Shown here piece after piece: positions 1,456 to 54,318 of a stretch of 64,000 nucleotides of DNA. Source of the stretch: Ancylothrix sp. D3o (lineage in GTDB: Bacteria; Cyanobacteriota; Cyanobacteriia; Cyanobacteriales; Oscillatoriaceae); assembly GCF_025370775.1 (NCBI RefSeq), contig NZ_JAMXEX010000001.1, positions 930,001 to 994,000 of the forward strand. The letters run 5' to 3'. The notes below the pieces were generated by a model. The model had not been told where the DNA came from. It ran no database searches and saw only the letters and a program-made list of their open reading frames with translations. The translations under genes were made by a program, and so were the position numbers. Position 1 is the first letter of the stretch, and the number at the start of each line of letters is the position of its first letter.

Positions 1456-2124
1456 TTAGTCGTTTGTTGGCGCAGTTTTCTTTTTGCTAAAAAGCCAACC
1501 CAATCCCACCAAACTTAAACCTAAAATTGTGCTAGGTTCAGGCACAGATGCAGAGGTACGCAACCAATAACTGACGATTCCGTCACCTCCTGAATTGGGA
1601 TTGGGGCCGGTGGTTCTATCCCACCCGTTCATGTAATAAAAGCCGGAATTTCCCAATGTCCACCAACCGTTTGCCTCACCCCGACCATCAAAATCAAAAG
1701 AATTAAACGTGGAAAAACTAAACCTCTCTAAAGTTCCTCCCCTGGGAATTGAATATATCCCTGTATTTTCTGGATCAATAATTACTTCTCCATTTGTAAT
1801 TGTTAAAGGCAAAGAACGCGGCCATGTACGCCCATCGGTTCGCAAATCAGATTGGGTGTATGTTCTGGGCGCATACAAATTTTGATAATTTGTATCAATA
1901 AAGTCAAAACTAAAGTCTGTTATCTCATAATAAGGCTGCACACCGGCAGGAGAAGGAGCCGTATCATCATAACTAAAGTAACCTTTATAATCACCCCTTT
2001 CCGTCTCAACTAAAAAATCATAAGTAATGGTTGAAGCAGCAGCAATTTCAGTTTTTATTGCAGCTAAACTTAAGCTAGTCGCCACCACAGTTAGCGCTAA
2101 TTTCTGTAAAGTTATACCTGACAT
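1456..2124 (-). CDS. PEP-CTERM sorting-signal secreted protein
   Basis: This is a 222-residue secreted protein. The N-terminus (about residues 1-30) is a signal peptide with a hydrophobic core ending near AAAS. The C-terminus carries a complete PEP-CTERM signal: SVPEPSTILGL, then a hydrophobic helix and a basic tail (SKKK). Such tails are processed by exosortase and direct proteins to the outer surface or exopolysaccharide; no exosortase gene is in this window. The middle is rich in Ser, Gly, Tyr and Asp and I do not recognise its fold. A strong ribosome site (AAGGAGGG) lies about 5 bases before the ATG, which fixes the start. It probably stands alone, since its neighbours are unrelated. Confidence 0.85.
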   Translation of the reverse strand: MSGITLQKLALTVVATSLSLAAIKTEIAAASTITYDFLVETERGDYKGYFSYDDTAPSPAGVQPYYEITDFSFDFIDTNYQNLYAPRTYTQSDLRTDGRTWPRSLPLTITNGEVIIDPENTGIYSIPRGGTLERFSFSTFNSFDFDGRGEANGWWTLGNSGFYYMNGWDRTTGPNPNSGGDGIVSYWLRTSASVPEPSTILGLSLVGLGWLFSKKKTAPTND

Positions 2125-47956: not shown

Positions 47957-48748
47957 TTAAGGAAACCCTCGACGCGGTTGAGTATCCGAATAATAGGGCC
48001 CTGATTGTGGCAAACTTAAATAAGGCACACCGGCCTGTTGAGAATTTGAATAAGGGTCTGATGCCGGTCGTCTTAAATTTTGACTCTCTAATTCAATTCC
48101 TATCGCCCCATCGAGTTTTGCATTTGCCAAATTTGCCCCATTGAGATTAGCGCCAGAAAGATTAGCACCACTTAAATTTGCATTTAATAAATTGGCACTA
48201 CTCAAATTAGCACCGCTGAGGTTTGCATCACTTAAATCTACTTCAACTAAACGCGCATCACTGAGATTTGCATTGAGCAAATTGGCAGCCACCAAATTTG
48301 CTTTCCCCATATTACTGCCGGCCAAATTTACCCCACTTAAATTTGCTCTTGCTAACTGTGTGCCAATTAAATTAGCACCTGATAAATCTGCACCGGAAAG
48401 ATTACCATCGCTGATATCAGCATTAACAAGATTGGAGACGCGCAAATCGGCGCCGCTGAGATTAGCATGATTGAGATGAGATTCAAATAAATTGATGCCT
48501 TTAGCATCCAAACCACTTAAATCGGAACTCACCAAATCCGCAGCCACCACATTTGCAAAACTTAAATCAGCACCACTTAAATTTGCCTTACTCAACTTAA
48601 CACTGTTGAGATTAGCAAACATTAATTTTGCACCACTTAAATCGGCTCCACTCAAATTAAACCGGCTCAAGTTGGCATCTCTAAGATCGCCTCCTTGGCA
48701 TTGTTTCGTTTCTAATAACCGTTTGACGTGCGCGGGATTTCCAGCCAT
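47957..48748 (-). CDS. Pentapeptide-repeat protein, copy 2
   Basis: This 263-residue protein is a close relative of the one at 20222-21025. It shares the cap (MAGNPAHVKRLLETKQCQGG), tandem A(N/D)LSG repeats over about 200 residues, and a Gln/Ser/Pro-rich tail. The start is the ATG at 48748, aligned with copy 1. The two copies are about 27 kb apart on opposite strands, so they are dispersed paralogues. The repeats predict a quadrilateral beta helix. The function is unknown. Confidence 0.85.
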   Translation of the reverse strand: MAGNPAHVKRLLETKQCQGGDLRDANLSRFNLSGADLSGAKLMFANLNSVKLSKANLSGADLSFANVVAADLVSSDLSGLDAKGINLFESHLNHANLSGADLRVSNLVNADISDGNLSGADLSGANLIGTQLARANLSGVNLAGSNMGKANLVAANLLNANLSDARLVEVDLSDANLSGANLSSANLLNANLSGANLSGANLNGANLANAKLDGAIGIELESQNLRRPASDPYSNSQQAGVPYLSLPQSGPYYSDTQPRRGFP

Positions 48749-49063: not shown

Positions 49064-52000
49064 ATGACTCAATCCGCTGCACACTCCTATTGCTTAAATC
49101 CCAATTGTCAGCATTCTCAAAATACTCTTACGGCTGAAAATTGCAATGCTTGTGGTACGCCGTTATTATTACAAAACCGTTATCGGGCGATTAAATTGCT
49201 TGGTGCTGGGGGTTTTGGACGAACTTTTTTAGCCATTGATACCTCGAAATCTAGCCAAAACCGCTGTGTAATTAAACAATTTTTTCCTAAAAGTAATGCC
49301 AACCGGCAAAAAGCCTCTGAGTTATTTCGTCAGGAAGCTGAAAAGCTTAAAAATGTAGGAAAATTTCGGCAAGTTCCGGCTTTATTCGATTATTTTGAAG
49401 AAGGAAAAGAACAATATTTGCTGCAAGAATATATTGCCGGTGATAATCTTGCTCAAGAGTTAGAAAAAGAAGGGCCGTTTGATGAAAGAAAGATTCGGGA
49501 AGTTCTGGAACAATTGCTGCCGGTGTTGTGGAATATTCACAACCAAAAAATGATTCACCGCGATATTAAACCAGAAAATATTATCCGCCGGTCTTCCAAT
49601 GGACATCTCGTTTTAGTTGATTTTGGGGCCGCAAAATTTGCCACCGAAACTTCCCTTGCTAAAACCGGCACGATGATCGGTTCTGCTGCCTATATTGCAC
49701 CCGAACAAACGCGGGGTAAAGCGACGTTTGCCAGTGATCTTTACAGTTTGGGTGTAACTTGCATTCACTTAATGACAAATATCCCGACTTTCGATTTATT
49801 TGATTCTACTGAGGATCGTTGGATTTGGCGACAATATTTAGCGAGGCCGGTGAGTTCTCAATTAGGTAATGTGTTGGATAAAATGCTGGAAAGCGCCCTC
49901 AAAAAACGTTACCAAACAGCCTCAGAAGCGCTCAAAGAGTTGAATGATAATCAATCACTTCTGGCGAAACCAAAAACAAAAATCATCGCTGGAAGTGCGG
50001 CATTATTATTGTTTGGTTGGATGGGGTTTAGCGTGGTAGGTTCGTTTATGCAGCAAACCCAAGCGCCGGTTACAAGTTTGGCGGAAAGCACAAATAATCT
50101 GGAAAACTTCTCAAAACCGTTGGGAGTGGGTGGATTATTTGCCAATGATAAAGGACAACAAAAATCTTTCCCATTGTTGCGAACTGATGTAAAAACAAAG
50201 ATTTCTGGTAATATTTCGCGGGTGGAGGTTAAACAAAGTTTTGCTAATCCTTATAAGGAACCTTTGGAGGCGGTTTATACATTTCCATTGCCAGATGAAG
50301 CGGCGGTGGATGATATGGAAATTCGGATTGGAGATCGGGTGATTAAGGGGGTGATTAAAAAACGCGAGGAAGCAAAACAGATTTATGAAAAAGCCAAACA
50401 AGAAGGAAAGACTGCGGGTTTGCTTGAACAAGAAAGAGATAATATTTTTACGCAGTCTTTAGCGAATATTAAACCGGGTGAAAAAATCGAGGTTGTGATT
50501 CGTTATACGGATAGTTTGAAGTTTGAGGGGGGAAATTATGAATTTGCGTTTCCGATGGTAGTTGGGCCGCGTTATATTCCGGGGTCAAAAATTAACGTTC
50601 AAGGGGATACAAATCAGGTTCCAGATAGTTCTAAAATTACGCCGCCAACGCTTCCAGCAACAAGGTCTGGTCAGGATGTTAGCATGGCGATTGAAATTGA
50701 TGCCGGTGTGCCTATTGTGGAGGTAAAATCGCCTTCTCATAAGCTTTTAATTCAAAAACCTGGGTCATCGGAGGCGGAGATAAAATTGGCGCAGGAAAAG
50801 ACAATTCCGAATAAGGATTTTATTTTGCGTTATAAGGTGGCCGGTGCGGAAACGCAGGCAACAATTTTAACTCAAAAAGATGAAAAAGGCGGACATTTTG
50901 GGGTTTATTTGATTCCGGCTGTCGAGTATGCGCCGAAACAAATTGTACCGAAAGATGTGGTATTTTTGATGGATACTTCGGGGTCACAGATGGGGGCGCC
51001 AATTCAACAATCGAAGGAGTTAATGCGCCGTTTTATTAGTGGTTTGAATGCGAATGATACGTTTACGATTATCGATTTTGCGAGTACATCAACAAAGCTT
51101 TCTGCGGAACCTTTGAAGAATACACCGGCCAATCGTGCCAAAGCTTTAGCCTATGTTAACAAGCTGGATGCCAATGGCGGAAGTGAGTTAATGAATGGCA
51201 TTAATGAAGTGTTAAATTTCCCGCCGGCGCCGGATGGAAGATTGCGGAGTATTGTGTTATTAACCGATGGTTTAATAGGCGATGATATGCAGGTCATTGG
51301 GCAAGTTCAAAATCGGTTAAAACCAGGAAACCGGCTTTATGTTTTTGGCGTTGGCCCTGCATCTAATCGGTTTATTCTTAATCGTTTGGCAGAGATTGGA
51401 CGCGGTAAGGTGGAAATTTTGCCACCAGAAGAACCGGCCCAAAAAGTGGCAGCTAAGTTTTTCCGAGATTTGAATAATCCGGTATTGACAAATATTGAGG
51501 TTAGTTGGGTTGGCGAGGGTAAAGAACCGATTGTTTATCCTTTACAATCGGCAGATTTATTTGCTAATCAACCGCTGGTTTTATTTGGCAAAAAAGAAGA
51601 CCGCAAAAATGGGGAATTAAAAATCACTGGTACAATGGCGGGGGGACAGCGGTATGAAAAAGTTTTGAATGTGAATTTTGACCAGGTTACAGGTAATTCT
51701 GGGATTGCTCAATTGTGGGGACGTGCGAGAATTAAGGAGTTGATGAATCAAATTTATAGCCGTGAAACTCCGACGTTGGTTAAGATGGTGACGGATACAG
51801 CATTGCAGTATCGTTTGATGTCAAATTATACGGCGTTTGTGGCGGTTTCTGAGGAGGTTCGTGTTGATCCAAAAAATGCTAAACTTAAGCAACAAGTGCC
51901 GGTGAATTTACCGCAAGGAATGCCAGCCCAACCGATGCCTATGTATGGTGGGAGTGTCGGTGCTGTTCCTGAAGGCAGTTCAATTTTGACAAATATTTTA

Positions 52001-52096
52001 GTGGTTTTGATGTTGGGTGTTTATTGGGTTTATAAACGCCGGTTGGGGGTGAAAAGTATAAACCCCAAAGGCACAAATATGTCGGCAGATGAATAG
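49064..52096 (+). CDS. Ser/Thr protein kinase fused to VIT and VWA domains
   Basis: This protein of about 1,010 residues starts at ATG 49064, with GGAG nine bases upstream. Residues 10-30 form a zinc ribbon (Cys10, Cys15, Cys27, Cys30). A PknB-type kinase follows (about 40-300): GAGGFG loop, Lys71, HRDIKPEN, VDFGAAK and PEQTRGKA. One membrane helix (about 308-330) leads to a VIT domain (about 360-490; VKQSFANPYKEPLEAVYTF) and a VWA domain (about 590-770) with an intact MIDAS DTSGSQMG. A second helix lies near the C-terminus (about 970-990). VIT-VWA is the layout of inter-alpha-trypsin inhibitor heavy chains. A cytoplasmic kinase joined to an outside adhesive module suggests an adhesion-coupled sensor. 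Confidence 0.9.
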   Translation: MTQSAAHSYCLNPNCQHSQNTLTAENCNACGTPLLLQNRYRAIKLLGAGGFGRTFLAIDTSKSSQNRCVIKQFFPKSNANRQKASELFRQEAEKLKNVGKFRQVPALFDYFEEGKEQYLLQEYIAGDNLAQELEKEGPFDERKIREVLEQLLPVLWNIHNQKMIHRDIKPENIIRRSSNGHLVLVDFGAAKFATETSLAKTGTMIGSAAYIAPEQTRGKATFASDLYSLGVTCIHLMTNIPTFDLFDSTEDRWIWRQYLARPVSSQLGNVLDKMLESALKKRYQTASEALKELNDNQSLLAKPKTKIIAGSAALLLFGWMGFSVVGSFMQQTQAPVTSLAESTNNLENFSKPLGVGGLFANDKGQQKSFPLLRTDVKTKISGNISRVEVKQSFANPYKEPLEAVYTFPLPDEAAVDDMEIRIGDRVIKGVIKKREEAKQIYEKAKQEGKTAGLLEQERDNIFTQSLANIKPGEKIEVVIRYTDSLKFEGGNYEFAFPMVVGPRYIPGSKINVQGDTNQVPDSSKITPPTLPATRSGQDVSMAIEIDAGVPIVEVKSPSHKLLIQKPGSSEAEIKLAQEKTIPNKDFILRYKVAGAETQATILTQKDEKGGHFGVYLIPAVEYAPKQIVPKDVVFLMDTSGSQMGAPIQQSKELMRRFISGLNANDTFTIIDFASTSTKLSAEPLKNTPANRAKALAYVNKLDANGGSELMNGINEVLNFPPAPDGRLRSIVLLTDGLIGDDMQVIGQVQNRLKPGNRLYVFGVGPASNRFILNRLAEIGRGKVEILPPEEPAQKVAAKFFRDLNNPVLTNIEVSWVGEGKEPIVYPLQSADLFANQPLVLFGKKEDRKNGELKITGTMAGGQRYEKVLNVNFDQVTGNSGIAQLWGRARIKELMNQIYSRETPTLVKMVTDTALQYRLMSNYTAFVAVSEEVRVDPKNAKLKQQVPVNLPQGMPAQPMPMYGGSVGAVPEGSSILTNILVVLMLGVYWVYKRRLGVKSINPKGTNMSADE

Positions 52097-52130: not shown

Positions 52131-53765
52131 TTAGTTTCGGGGTGCGTTTGGCGATGCACCCTCCTTTATTTTAAATAAACTTATTTCATCAATTTTGCTT
52201 ATAAAAACTAACTGTATTTTTCGGTTTTGATTTGGCAGTGATGCCAGTAATTCTTCCGAAGGATTGTAGAGGAAAACATCACTAAAATTATGGTAAATTA
52301 GCGGCATTTTTGGTTCAATGATAAGACTAAGCTTAACTTTTTCATCTAAAAGATAGCTTAAAGATAATAAGTTTCCCAAGTTTTGAAAGTTAATTAAGTT
52401 TAAGTCTTTTTCACTTATGAGGAGGGGTGCTTTAGTTTGATTGATAATTTTAGCAATATTATAATTATGATTACTATTATATTTAAACCACCACACGGGA
52501 GATTGAGAACTAATTGCACAAGAAATAATCCCCACAGATAGCATTGATCCTAAAGCAAAATTCCACAAAGCTTTTTTGTAAGAAAAAACTATTTTATTTG
52601 CTAAAAAATAAGCCATTGCTAACTGTAAACCCACATAGCAAGGAATTAGATAACGGCTAACAGTTGAACGCATACCGCCAAGCAATAAATCTGGGATGGC
52701 TAGGAGGATAAATGTGAGAATACTCAACAGCAAAATAAACTGCCAGATGCGGGGGGAAGAATGCCGGTATGTAAAATAAATTGAGTAACAGATAAAATAA
52801 AAGCCACCTAATAAAATAGCGATACCCATAAAATTAAAGCGAAAATCTCTGGAACTTGCAAAGTTAAAATCTAAAAAAGGTAGATTGAAATTTACTAACC
52901 AAAGTTTGAATAAAGCATTGTAATAACCAGGCATTATTTGAGTTTGCCAGTTGGTTTTATTTTGAACTTGTTCCCAGTGTAAAATTATCGGCAAAAACCA
53001 AGGCACTAAAGCCAAAAAACCTGCACACCAAACCACAGTAAAACGGGAAAAAGTTTTTGTCCACTTAAAATGTTCTTGAATGGCGGCATAAATTGCATGA
53101 ATAACCACAACAAAAATAAAAAATAAATGGGTATAAAAACCAACCAATAGCGACATAAAATAATAGAAAAAGATCAAGACAGTTTGCCGTTTTATGGCAT
53201 GGAGAAATGCCGCACAAGAAAAGATAATTGTCACCGTCCATAAACTATAGGGGCGTGCTTCTTGAGAGTAAAGCACATGAAACGGAGAAACCGCCATCAA
53301 AGCAATAGCTATCCAACTCACAAATGGTGCTAGAAATAACTCTTGACACAACCAATAGAGGGCGGGAAAAATTAACAGACTAATCACCGCTGATAAACTG
53401 CGAATTGTGACAATAGAACTGCCAAAAACCTGGGCCCAAAAGCGAGCAATGATAAAATAAAGAGGAGTAAGCTGCGGTTCTTCCGTTGCCACCCCCCGAA
53501 TAGTATCTAAAACTGTTTTATCAGGGTTAATTTTTTGGTATTTTTGTAAAGTTTTAATGCCGATAATGCCTTTTTGGGAAACTTCTTCTACTAACTGCGT
53601 TTCCGTGTATCCTGAAATGCGTAAAGAGGTAAAACTTTCATCAATCCAGTAAACCTTACCCTCCAAATGAACAAAGCGAAAAAATATCCCTAAAACCAAA
53701 ATAAGAACGAAAAAATATCGGTAGTTAGCAGATAATTTTTGCCAGTCGGTAAACAATTTCCTCAT
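52131..53765 (-). CDS. Glycosyltransferase family 39-like membrane protein
   Basis: This 544-residue integral membrane protein (from ATG 53765) has about eleven helices. The catalytic-loop motif is YWIDESF near residue 40, then LTPLYFI and SQEARPYSLW, as in ArnT/PMT-type enzymes that use polyprenyl-phosphate sugar donors. It is the second such gene in the window; the other (1-1379) has WLDEA and SQEARHYT. An earlier in-frame start at 53861 overlaps the upstream gene, so I prefer the ATG that gives an 11-base gap. It lies directly downstream of the NTF2-like gene, likely in one operon. Confidence 0.8.
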   Translation of the reverse strand: MRKLFTDWQKLSANYRYFFVLILVLGIFFRFVHLEGKVYWIDESFTSLRISGYTETQLVEEVSQKGIIGIKTLQKYQKINPDKTVLDTIRGVATEEPQLTPLYFIIARFWAQVFGSSIVTIRSLSAVISLLIFPALYWLCQELFLAPFVSWIAIALMAVSPFHVLYSQEARPYSLWTVTIIFSCAAFLHAIKRQTVLIFFYYFMSLLVGFYTHLFFIFVVVIHAIYAAIQEHFKWTKTFSRFTVVWCAGFLALVPWFLPIILHWEQVQNKTNWQTQIMPGYYNALFKLWLVNFNLPFLDFNFASSRDFRFNFMGIAILLGGFYFICYSIYFTYRHSSPRIWQFILLLSILTFILLAIPDLLLGGMRSTVSRYLIPCYVGLQLAMAYFLANKIVFSYKKALWNFALGSMLSVGIISCAISSQSPVWWFKYNSNHNYNIAKIINQTKAPLLISEKDLNLINFQNLGNLLSLSYLLDEKVKLSLIIEPKMPLIYHNFSDVFLYNPSEELLASLPNQNRKIQLVFISKIDEISLFKIKEGASPNAPRN

Positions 53766-53775
53766 GCTATTTTGG

Positions 53776-54318
53776 TTAATCCAAATATTCAATTTTTTCC
53801 AATTGAGACGAGTAAAATTTCCACTGGCCGTTATATTTTTGGAGGTTACATCTGACAACACTTCTGTTATTTCTAAATTCTTGTGGCCCCCTAATTTTTC
53901 TGCCTGTAAGCGTCAGTCTTACTATAGCTTCATTTGCCGAAATTTTCAAAAACTCCGTTTTATTCACTTCAGTTTTGATATCAGCCGCCTTAAAAATTTG
54001 CTGCAATAAAGGCTCCATCTTATCCATCTCAGAAGAATTGGGATGATATGTATCCCTTATCCCTTGCAAATTTTCCTCATTAGTTGCTTTAAGCTGGCGA
54101 TTAATTAATGCTTGAATCGCCTGCCGGTCTGTTTGCTGACTTTGTTTTGTAGATTGCGCCATCACCGGCCTAAAATTCACAGAACCCCCCAAAACCGCAT
54201 CCCCAAAAGCCAAAAAAACAGCCAAAAAAACCAAACCCAAAACTCTCGTACCCTTGTAACTCATCATCCCCCAAATCCTCCTTATCAACAACCGCAGATG
54301 AGCAGAAAACATCTGCAT
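53776..54318 (-). CDS. Secreted NTF2-like protein
   Basis: This 180-residue protein begins with a basic segment and a hydrophobic signal peptide that ends near VMAQST. The remainder resembles a small cone-shaped NTF2/SnoaL domain: ALINRQLKATNEENL, IRDTYHPNS, TEFLKISANEAIVRLTLT and a final strand NGQWKFYSS. I see no catalytic signature, so a ligand-binding or structural role is more likely. The start could be later (Met19). It sits between putA upstream and the glycosyltransferase downstream, all on the minus strand. Confidence 0.65.
   Translation of the reverse strand: MQMFSAHLRLLIRRIWGMMSYKGTRVLGLVFLAVFLAFGDAVLGGSVNFRPVMAQSTKQSQQTDRQAIQALINRQLKATNEENLQGIRDTYHPNSSEMDKMEPLLQQIFKAADIKTEVNKTEFLKISANEAIVRLTLTGRKIRGPQEFRNNRSVVRCNLQKYNGQWKFYSSQLEKIEYLD

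What the first reader, a model, noticed from the sequence alone, without database searches (positions are those of the whole stretch)
49064..52096. Ser/Thr kinase joined to VIT and VWA domains across the membrane
A zinc-ribbon and kinase lie before a helix, and VIT plus VWA with intact MIDAS (DTSGSQMG) lie after it, followed by a second helix. VIT-VWA is known from secreted inter-alpha-trypsin inhibitor heavy chains. A kinase in the same chain suggests an adhesion-coupled sensor.
Basis: partly seen in the sequence, partly recalled or inferred. Interest (0 to 1): 0.6.

Follow-up and report, generated by a model that had tools for sequence, protein, structure and literature searches.

The report
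Membrane kinase with exosortase-type surface tail
A cyanobacterial protein joins a kinase, probably inside the cell, to a VIT-VWA module probably outside it, and its relatives end in a tag used to hand proteins to a surface-sorting enzyme whose gene often sits next door, so it may let cells sense their own outer coat.

Summary
In detail: one intact 1010-aa ORF (49064-52096, +) with a 4-Cys motif, a Ser/Thr kinase with intact catalytic residues, TM1, VIT, VWA with MIDAS, and a second helix. It is not a misassembly: 34 homologous fusion proteins from 32 other genomes share it, and they form one clade apart from kinase-less VIT-VWA proteins.

In 33 of 35 fusions it is a PEP-CTERM-type tail (PEP + helix + basic end), the sorting signal of exosortases. 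One paralogue lacks the tail. The window copy alone reads VPEG and matches no PEP-CTERM model. In 11 of 35 fusion loci a cyanoexosortase A gene lies within 8 kb downstream (10 of them within 1.1 kb; partner gene seen in 8 of the 11), against 0 of 19 kinase-less VIT-VWA loci. The window's genome has cyanoexosortases A and B, not beside this gene.

Best reading: an N-in/C-in receptor kinase whose VIT-VWA ectodomain is, in relatives at least, an exosortase substrate, so that its anchoring or release could be reported to the cytoplasm. Topology, processing, ligand and kinase substrate are inferred. 'Adhesion sensor' is plausible, untested. New variant of a known kind.

The parts
49064..52096 (+). 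whole gene, 1010 aa
49088..49165 (+). 4-Cys prefix (C10, C15, C27, C30)
   Evidence: NF045510 28.8 bits over cut-off 24; Cys invariant in 35 of 35
49181..49936 (+). Ser/Thr protein kinase, catalytic residues intact (K71, E91, HRD 165-167, N172, DFG 186-188)
   Evidence: PF00069 1.7e-39; residues
49982..50038 (+). TM1, signal anchor, N-in (inferred)
   Evidence: hydropathy 2.0; K/R 3 before, 0 after
50180..50506 (+). VIT domain
   Evidence: PF08487 9.4e-40
50954..51415 (+). VWA domain with MIDAS DTSGSQ (50972-50989)
   Evidence: PF13768 2e-16; D637, S639, S641 invariant in 35 of 35
51416..51934 (+). C-terminal part of the VIT-VWA unit (to residue 957)
   Evidence: TIGR03788 covers residues 372-957, 504.5 bits, below its cut-off of 551.65
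51965..52051 (+). degenerate PEP-CTERM-type tail: VPEG (PEP in 33 of 35 fusions), TM2, basic end KRRLGVK
   Evidence: no PEP-CTERM model hit for this copy

Best explanation
It is a transmembrane receptor-type Ser/Thr kinase. The N-terminal 4-Cys prefix and kinase are cytoplasmic, TM1 is an uncleaved signal anchor, VIT-VWA is in the periplasm or outside, and the C-terminal tail is a PEP-CTERM-type signal that re-enters the inner membrane. In the family, an exosortase (cyanoexosortase A where its gene is adjacent) is inferred to act on that tail at the periplasmic face, removing it and perhaps joining the ectodomain to an envelope or exopolysaccharide component. Because TM1 keeps the kinase tethered, cutting of the tail, joining of the VIT-VWA, or ligand binding at the MIDAS could change kinase output, so the cell could sense surface coat or attachment. 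Shown: domains, conserved catalytic and metal-site residues, conserved PEP tail, single clade, linkage to crtA in part of the family. Inferred: topology, processing, attachment, signalling. In the window copy PEP has become PEG, so its processing is less certain than in relatives.
For: Kinase, VIT and VWA models hit 35 of 35 aligned fusions; the 4-Cys model hits 34 of 35. Tail: P and E in 34 of 34 tails, third P in 33 of 34, within a tail of 34% mean column identity. TIGR02595 hits 20 of 34 tails (best 1.8e-5) and PF07589 13 of 34 (best 8e-4), at E up to 10. An exosortase within 8 kb of 11 of 35 fusion loci against 0 of 19 kinase-less loci, Fisher p 0.005, not corrected for relatedness. Four of the 11 were scanned and are cyanoexosortase A, 212-299 bits over a cut-off of 150; five more of the 11 appear over that cut-off at the same places; the other two (L083, L085) match my CrtA queries best. 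The 3 partner proteins scanned are TIGR04153, 141-219 bits over 100. In L002 crtA follows about 185 nt downstream on the same strand. All 32 fusion genomes held by the genome search have an exosortase; 344 of 388 overall. The fusions are one side of a branch, support 100. K/R flanks. CrtB of Nostoc is needed for motility and biofilm and affects PEP-CTERM exoproteins (PMC12188702: abstract, introduction and discussion seen).
Against: The window copy has VPEG (codon GGC, two changes from CCN) and no PEP-CTERM model hit. 14 of 34 tails miss TIGR02595 and 21 of 34 miss PF07589; scanned full length, PF07589 hits only 5 of 35 at E up to 1 and TIGR02595 is not among the 25 families listed. 24 of 35 fusion loci, the window's included, show no exosortase in the flank held (some flanks are short). 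In 7 of 32 fusion genomes the best match to the CrtA model is 7e-14 or weaker, so they seem to have only another exosortase type (read by hand). PEP-CTERM proteins typically have a cleavable signal peptide, which this cannot have. The K/R rule fails or ties at one or both helices in 8 of 35. Two paralogues (L102, L103) have broken kinase motifs and L103 has no tail. Exosortases are too common in the order for presence alone to say much.
Confidence: 0.5

Rival explanations
1. Ordinary two-helix receptor kinase: VIT-VWA binds a ligand through MIDAS, the second helix is only an anchor, and the PEP motif is structural or a relic with no exosortase processing.
For: Window copy has PEG and no model hit; 24 of 35 loci show no exosortase nearby; 7 of 32 genomes lack a strong CrtA match.
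Against: PE in 34 of 34 and PEP in 33 of 34 divergent tails; exosortase adjacency in 11 of 35 against 0 of 19.
Confidence: 0.25
2. The kinase is a regulator of the exosortase A or envelope system: the uncut tail in contact with the exosortase holds the kinase in one state and cutting switches it, so it reports exosortase load rather than outside attachment.
For: Adjacency to crtA and its partner; TM1 would keep the kinase in place after cutting (topology inferred).
Against: No direct evidence; crtA is convergent, not co-directional, in 10 of 11 loci.
Confidence: 0.15
3. Scaffold or pseudokinase-like membrane protein in which catalysis matters little.
For: L102 and L103 have HRN/HRH and a deleted activation segment.
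Against: The other 33 of 35, the window included, keep K, E, HRD, N and DFG.
Confidence: 0.06
4. Misassembly or chance fusion.
For: None found.
Against: 34 other fusion proteins in 32 other genomes, one clade.
Confidence: 0.01

Closest known systems
Kinase-less cyanobacterial VIT-VWA proteins (near TIGR03788, with after-VIT domain NF033769)
   Same: Homologous VIT-VWA unit, about 58-67% identity in the rows listed; L104, the one scanned, scores 527.9 bits with TIGR03788
   Different: No kinase; many begin with an N-terminal hydrophobic segment; L104 ends in an after-VIT domain, 106.1 bits over a cut-off of 45; PEP in the last 60 residues in 0 of 20 complete ones (corrected as told under Tried and rejected); 0 of 19 near an exosortase
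TIGR03788 marine proteobacterial sortase target protein
   Same: VIT-VWA unit; all 35 fusions match it; by its name a target of a sorting enzyme
   Different: Window 504.5 bits, below cut-off 551.65; sortase instead of exosortase; model has no kinase
TIGR02921 PEP-CTERM integral membrane family
   Same: VIT plus VWA-like region plus PEP-CTERM tail after N-terminal helices; cyanobacterial examples L128 (1553 bits) and L129 (1029 bits), cut-off 200; 30 of 35 fusions match weakly at E up to 1, best 5.7e-5
   Different: Several N-terminal helices, no kinase; the window protein itself is not a hit at E 1
PEP-CTERM / cyanoexosortase system (TIGR02595, TIGR03763, TIGR04153, TIGR04156)
   Same: Tail and, in part of the family, neighbouring genes
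   Different: Substrates are described with a cleavable signal peptide (PMC1569441 passages; PMC12188702 introduction)
PpkA of Pseudomonas aeruginosa
   Same: N-terminal Ser/Thr kinase and C-terminal VWA (PMC1262709, passages)
   Different: No VIT or PEP tail mentioned in those passages; its secretion-system role is recalled, from no call
Cyanobacterial kinases with a C-type lectin domain (diversity-generating retroelement targets)
   Same: N-terminal kinase with a C-terminal lectin domain (PMC7517822, passages)
   Different: Other second domain; no VIT-VWA or PEP tail in the passages seen

Membership tests
Hanks-type Ser/Thr kinase | kinase model match and catalytic K, E, HRD, N, DFG | tested here: met
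Hanks-type Ser/Thr kinase | phosphotransfer activity | not testable with these tools
   needs protein
4-Cys prefix kinases (NF045510) | score over cut-off 24 bits, four Cys | tested here: met
   28.8 bits; four Cys in 35 of 35
TIGR03788 sortase target | score over 551.65 bits | tested here: not met
   504.5 bits
PEP-CTERM proteins (window copy) | PEP motif before the helix | tested here: not met
   VPEG; no model hit
PEP-CTERM proteins (the fusion family) | PEP motif before the helix | tested here: met
   33 of 35 fusions
PEP-CTERM proteins (the fusion family) | match to TIGR02595 / PF07589 | tested here: inconclusive
   20 of 34 and 13 of 34 tails at E up to 10, best 1.8e-5 and 8e-4; per-member cut-offs were not shown; full-length scans hit fewer
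PEP-CTERM proteins | C-terminal helix followed by basic residues | tested here: met
   window K/R 0 before, 5 after; more after than before in 29 of 34
PEP-CTERM proteins | cleavable N-terminal signal peptide | tested here: not met
   the first hydrophobic segment lies after a 300-residue kinase region; no signal-peptide predictor was run
PEP-CTERM proteins | exosortase in the genome | tested here: met
   CrtA L126 226.6 bits (cut-off 150) and CrtB L125 441.4 bits (cut-off 300)
PEP-CTERM proteins | exosortase-dependent processing | not testable with these tools
   needs a deletion strain

The most novel reading that the evidence does not exclude
An exosortase (cyanoexosortase A where adjacent) covalently joins the VIT-VWA ectodomain of a tethered kinase to an envelope or exopolysaccharide component, making a receptor kinase that reads attachment or tension of the cell's own coat. 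VIT-VWA proteins would then be a recurrent module for C-terminal joining to surface polymers, as the sortase-target, exosortase-target and (recalled, from no call) ITIH-hyaluronan cases suggest.
Probability: 0.2. Interest if true: 0.85.

Novelty: new variant of a known kind. Interest (0 to 1): 0.55.

Why it matters
Exosortase substrates are thought of as exported structural or surface proteins. A kinase built into one would link surface-protein sorting to signalling. It also gives cyanoexosortase A a concrete candidate substrate and a direct genetic test: of the five papers that hold the word 'cyanoexosortase' three were opened and the parts seen give type A no function; two were not opened.

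Tried and rejected
Misassembly: rejected. Adhesion from ITIH likeness alone: not accepted, since intracellular PARP4 is the better match. Co-occurrence of fusion and exosortase: weak, since 344 of 388 genomes have one. CrtA over its cut-off is found in 198 of 388 genomes overall; 25 of 32 fusion genomes have a match at 1e-39 or better and 7 have nothing better than 7e-14 (read by hand; three of the 25, all genus g14, are by my estimate just under the cut-off). In genus g14 three genomes have both fusion and exosortase and three (G058, G083, G445) have neither, but those three genomes are smaller, so genome reduction could explain it. Conserved neighbours other than crtA: a gene that I read as pentapeptide-repeat in 7 of 35 loci and one that I read as a membrane glycosyltransferase in 4 of 35, both including the window (names from my reading, not from a family search), not pursued. 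Structure prediction of the ectodomain from three sequences gave mean pLDDT 51.8, too poor to use, so no fold search was run. A 20th control locus (L150) was dropped because no VIT-VWA gene was located in it. One search counted 22 kinase-less proteins of which 2 had a PEP tail; those two (L094, L101) are fusions with HRDLK/HRDVK that my pattern missed, leaving 0 of 20. The fusion list is a lower bound: one search scored two candidates per genome and did not list all matches, and I took the listed rows with long open frames. Paper searches listed no paper that by its title or the start of its abstract describes a kinase-VIT-VWA or kinase-PEP-CTERM protein; subscription papers are mostly absent from that library. 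The cyanobacterial kinase survey PMC2176072 has no hit for von Willebrand, VWA, vWF, inter-alpha-trypsin or PEP-CTERM in its main text. PMC12188702 has no hit for kinase, VWA or VIT.

Full report
What is there. The window holds one intact gene of 1010 codons at 49064-52096 on the + strand. It encodes a 4-Cys prefix, a Ser/Thr kinase, a helix, VIT, VWA and a second helix. The kinase keeps every catalytic residue checked, and the VWA keeps D-x-S-x-S and the later Asp. The ectodomain of the window protein holds no Cys.

It is a real family. A scan of genome contigs gave four loci; one, L002 of Pseudanabaenaceae cyanobacterium LEGE 13415, matches over residues 2-993, the other three over the kinase or the VIT-VWA part only. 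A search of 388 genomes of the order with the TM1-to-end part gave 153 genomes with a match at 1e-60. From the listed rows with long open frames, 34 proteins with the kinase part were aligned with the window: L002, one from each of 31 other genomes, and second copies L102 and L103 in G443 and G455. Full-length identity to the window is 52-67%. The list is a lower bound. In a tree of 77 VIT-VWA units (35 fusions, 42 kinase-less) the fusions are one side of a branch with support 100, so one origin fits (quick method, several open forks, L002 and some others on long branches). In a phylum sample 58 of 386 genomes have a VIT domain, so VIT itself is patchy.

The second helix. The tails of the fusions vary in length and sequence (34% mean column identity over 34 tails), yet P and E are invariant and the next P is missing only in the window. 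A helix and basic residues follow. TIGR02595 is hit by 20 of 34 tails and PF07589 by 13 of 34 at a lax threshold; full-length scans hit fewer (PF07589 5 of 35). L103 has no tail. Of 20 complete kinase-less VIT-VWA proteins none has PEP in its last 60 residues (after removing two misfiled fusions). So the kinase and the PEP tail go together in this sample.

The window copy reads V-P-E-G. The codon is GGC, two changes from any Pro codon, so a single base error does not explain it. The same genome has PEP-CTERM proteins: 6 places over the PF07589 cut-off, among them one in this window at 1456-2124 (-) with VPEPSTILG. It has CrtB (L125) and CrtA (L126, beside another PEP-CTERM gene).

Neighbours. 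In 11 of 35 fusion loci an exosortase lies within 8 kb, at 148-1065 nt downstream in ten of them and 4774 nt in L085; the partner gene is seen in 8 of these 11, and a twelfth locus (L086) shows the partner gene at the contig end. None of 19 kinase-less VIT-VWA loci has one (Fisher p 0.005, uncorrected for relatedness). Four of the exosortases were scanned and all are CrtA over the cut-off; three partners were scanned and all are TIGR04153 over the cut-off. Five more (in L074, L076, L080, L081, L082) are listed over the CrtA cut-off at the matching places. In L002 the genes follow on the same strand; in the other ten crtA is convergent. The cases spread over L002 and the family codes f1, f12, f47, f50 and f58 (codes), so this is not one lineage, though f1 and f47 give several.

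Topology. K/R counts within 15 residues favour kinase-in for TM1 in 28 of 35 (4 ties, 3 against) and a cytoplasmic C-end for TM2 in 29 of 34 (2 ties, 3 against). Most exceptions are one group of close relatives (L091, L093, L095-L097). This is a rule of thumb, not a measurement.

How it may work. Exosortase B in Nostoc is needed for motility, biofilm and scytonemin and affects PEP-CTERM proteins in the exoproteome, and its authors suggest removal of the tail and possible covalent joining to polysaccharide or another molecule (PMC12188702; abstract, introduction, discussion). The fusion cannot be released whole, because TM1 follows a kinase that must stay in the cytoplasm to work. If the tail is cut, one end stays in the membrane with the kinase and the other is free or joined to something outside. 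That geometry suits a receptor for coat state or attachment. No step of this has been measured.

Known or new. Kinase plus VWA is known (PpkA; PMC1262709 passages), as are kinases with lectin domains in cyanobacteria (PMC7517822 passages), VIT-VWA sortase targets (TIGR03788) and VIT PEP-CTERM integral proteins (TIGR02921). In 2006 nearly all PEP-CTERM proteins were said to have a signal peptide and, except one three-member integral family, no helices between it and the tail (PMC1569441, passages). I found no paper on this combination in the searches named under Tried and rejected. I file it as a new variant of a known kind.

Noticed in passing
window 1456-2124 (-): A 222-aa secreted-looking protein with a canonical PEP-CTERM tail (VPEPSTILGLSLVGLGWLFSKKK).
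   Followed up: partly
L102:6605-9679, L103:7984-10947: Second fusion copies in genus g146 with broken kinase motifs (HRN/HRH, shortened activation segment); L103 also lacks the PEP tail.
   Followed up: partly
L128:1046-3814, L129:584-3448: A second cyanobacterial VIT family, TIGR02921, with N-terminal helices, a VWA-like DTSRSM region and a PEP-CTERM tail.
   Followed up: partly
L126:389-2229: In the window's genome cyanoexosortase A lies beside a PEP-CTERM protein gene.
   Followed up: partly
window 47957-48748 (-) and 52131-53861 (-): Genes that read as pentapeptide-repeat and membrane glycosyltransferase flank the fusion; relatives of them lie near it in 7 of 35 and 4 of 35 loci.
   Followed up: no
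genus g14 (G211, G434, G457 against G058, G083, G445): Fusion and exosortase are both present or both absent within one genus; the latter genomes are smaller.
   Followed up: no
L089, L090, L099: Kinase-less VIT-VWA proteins of more than 1000 aa with an extra region not identified.
   Followed up: no
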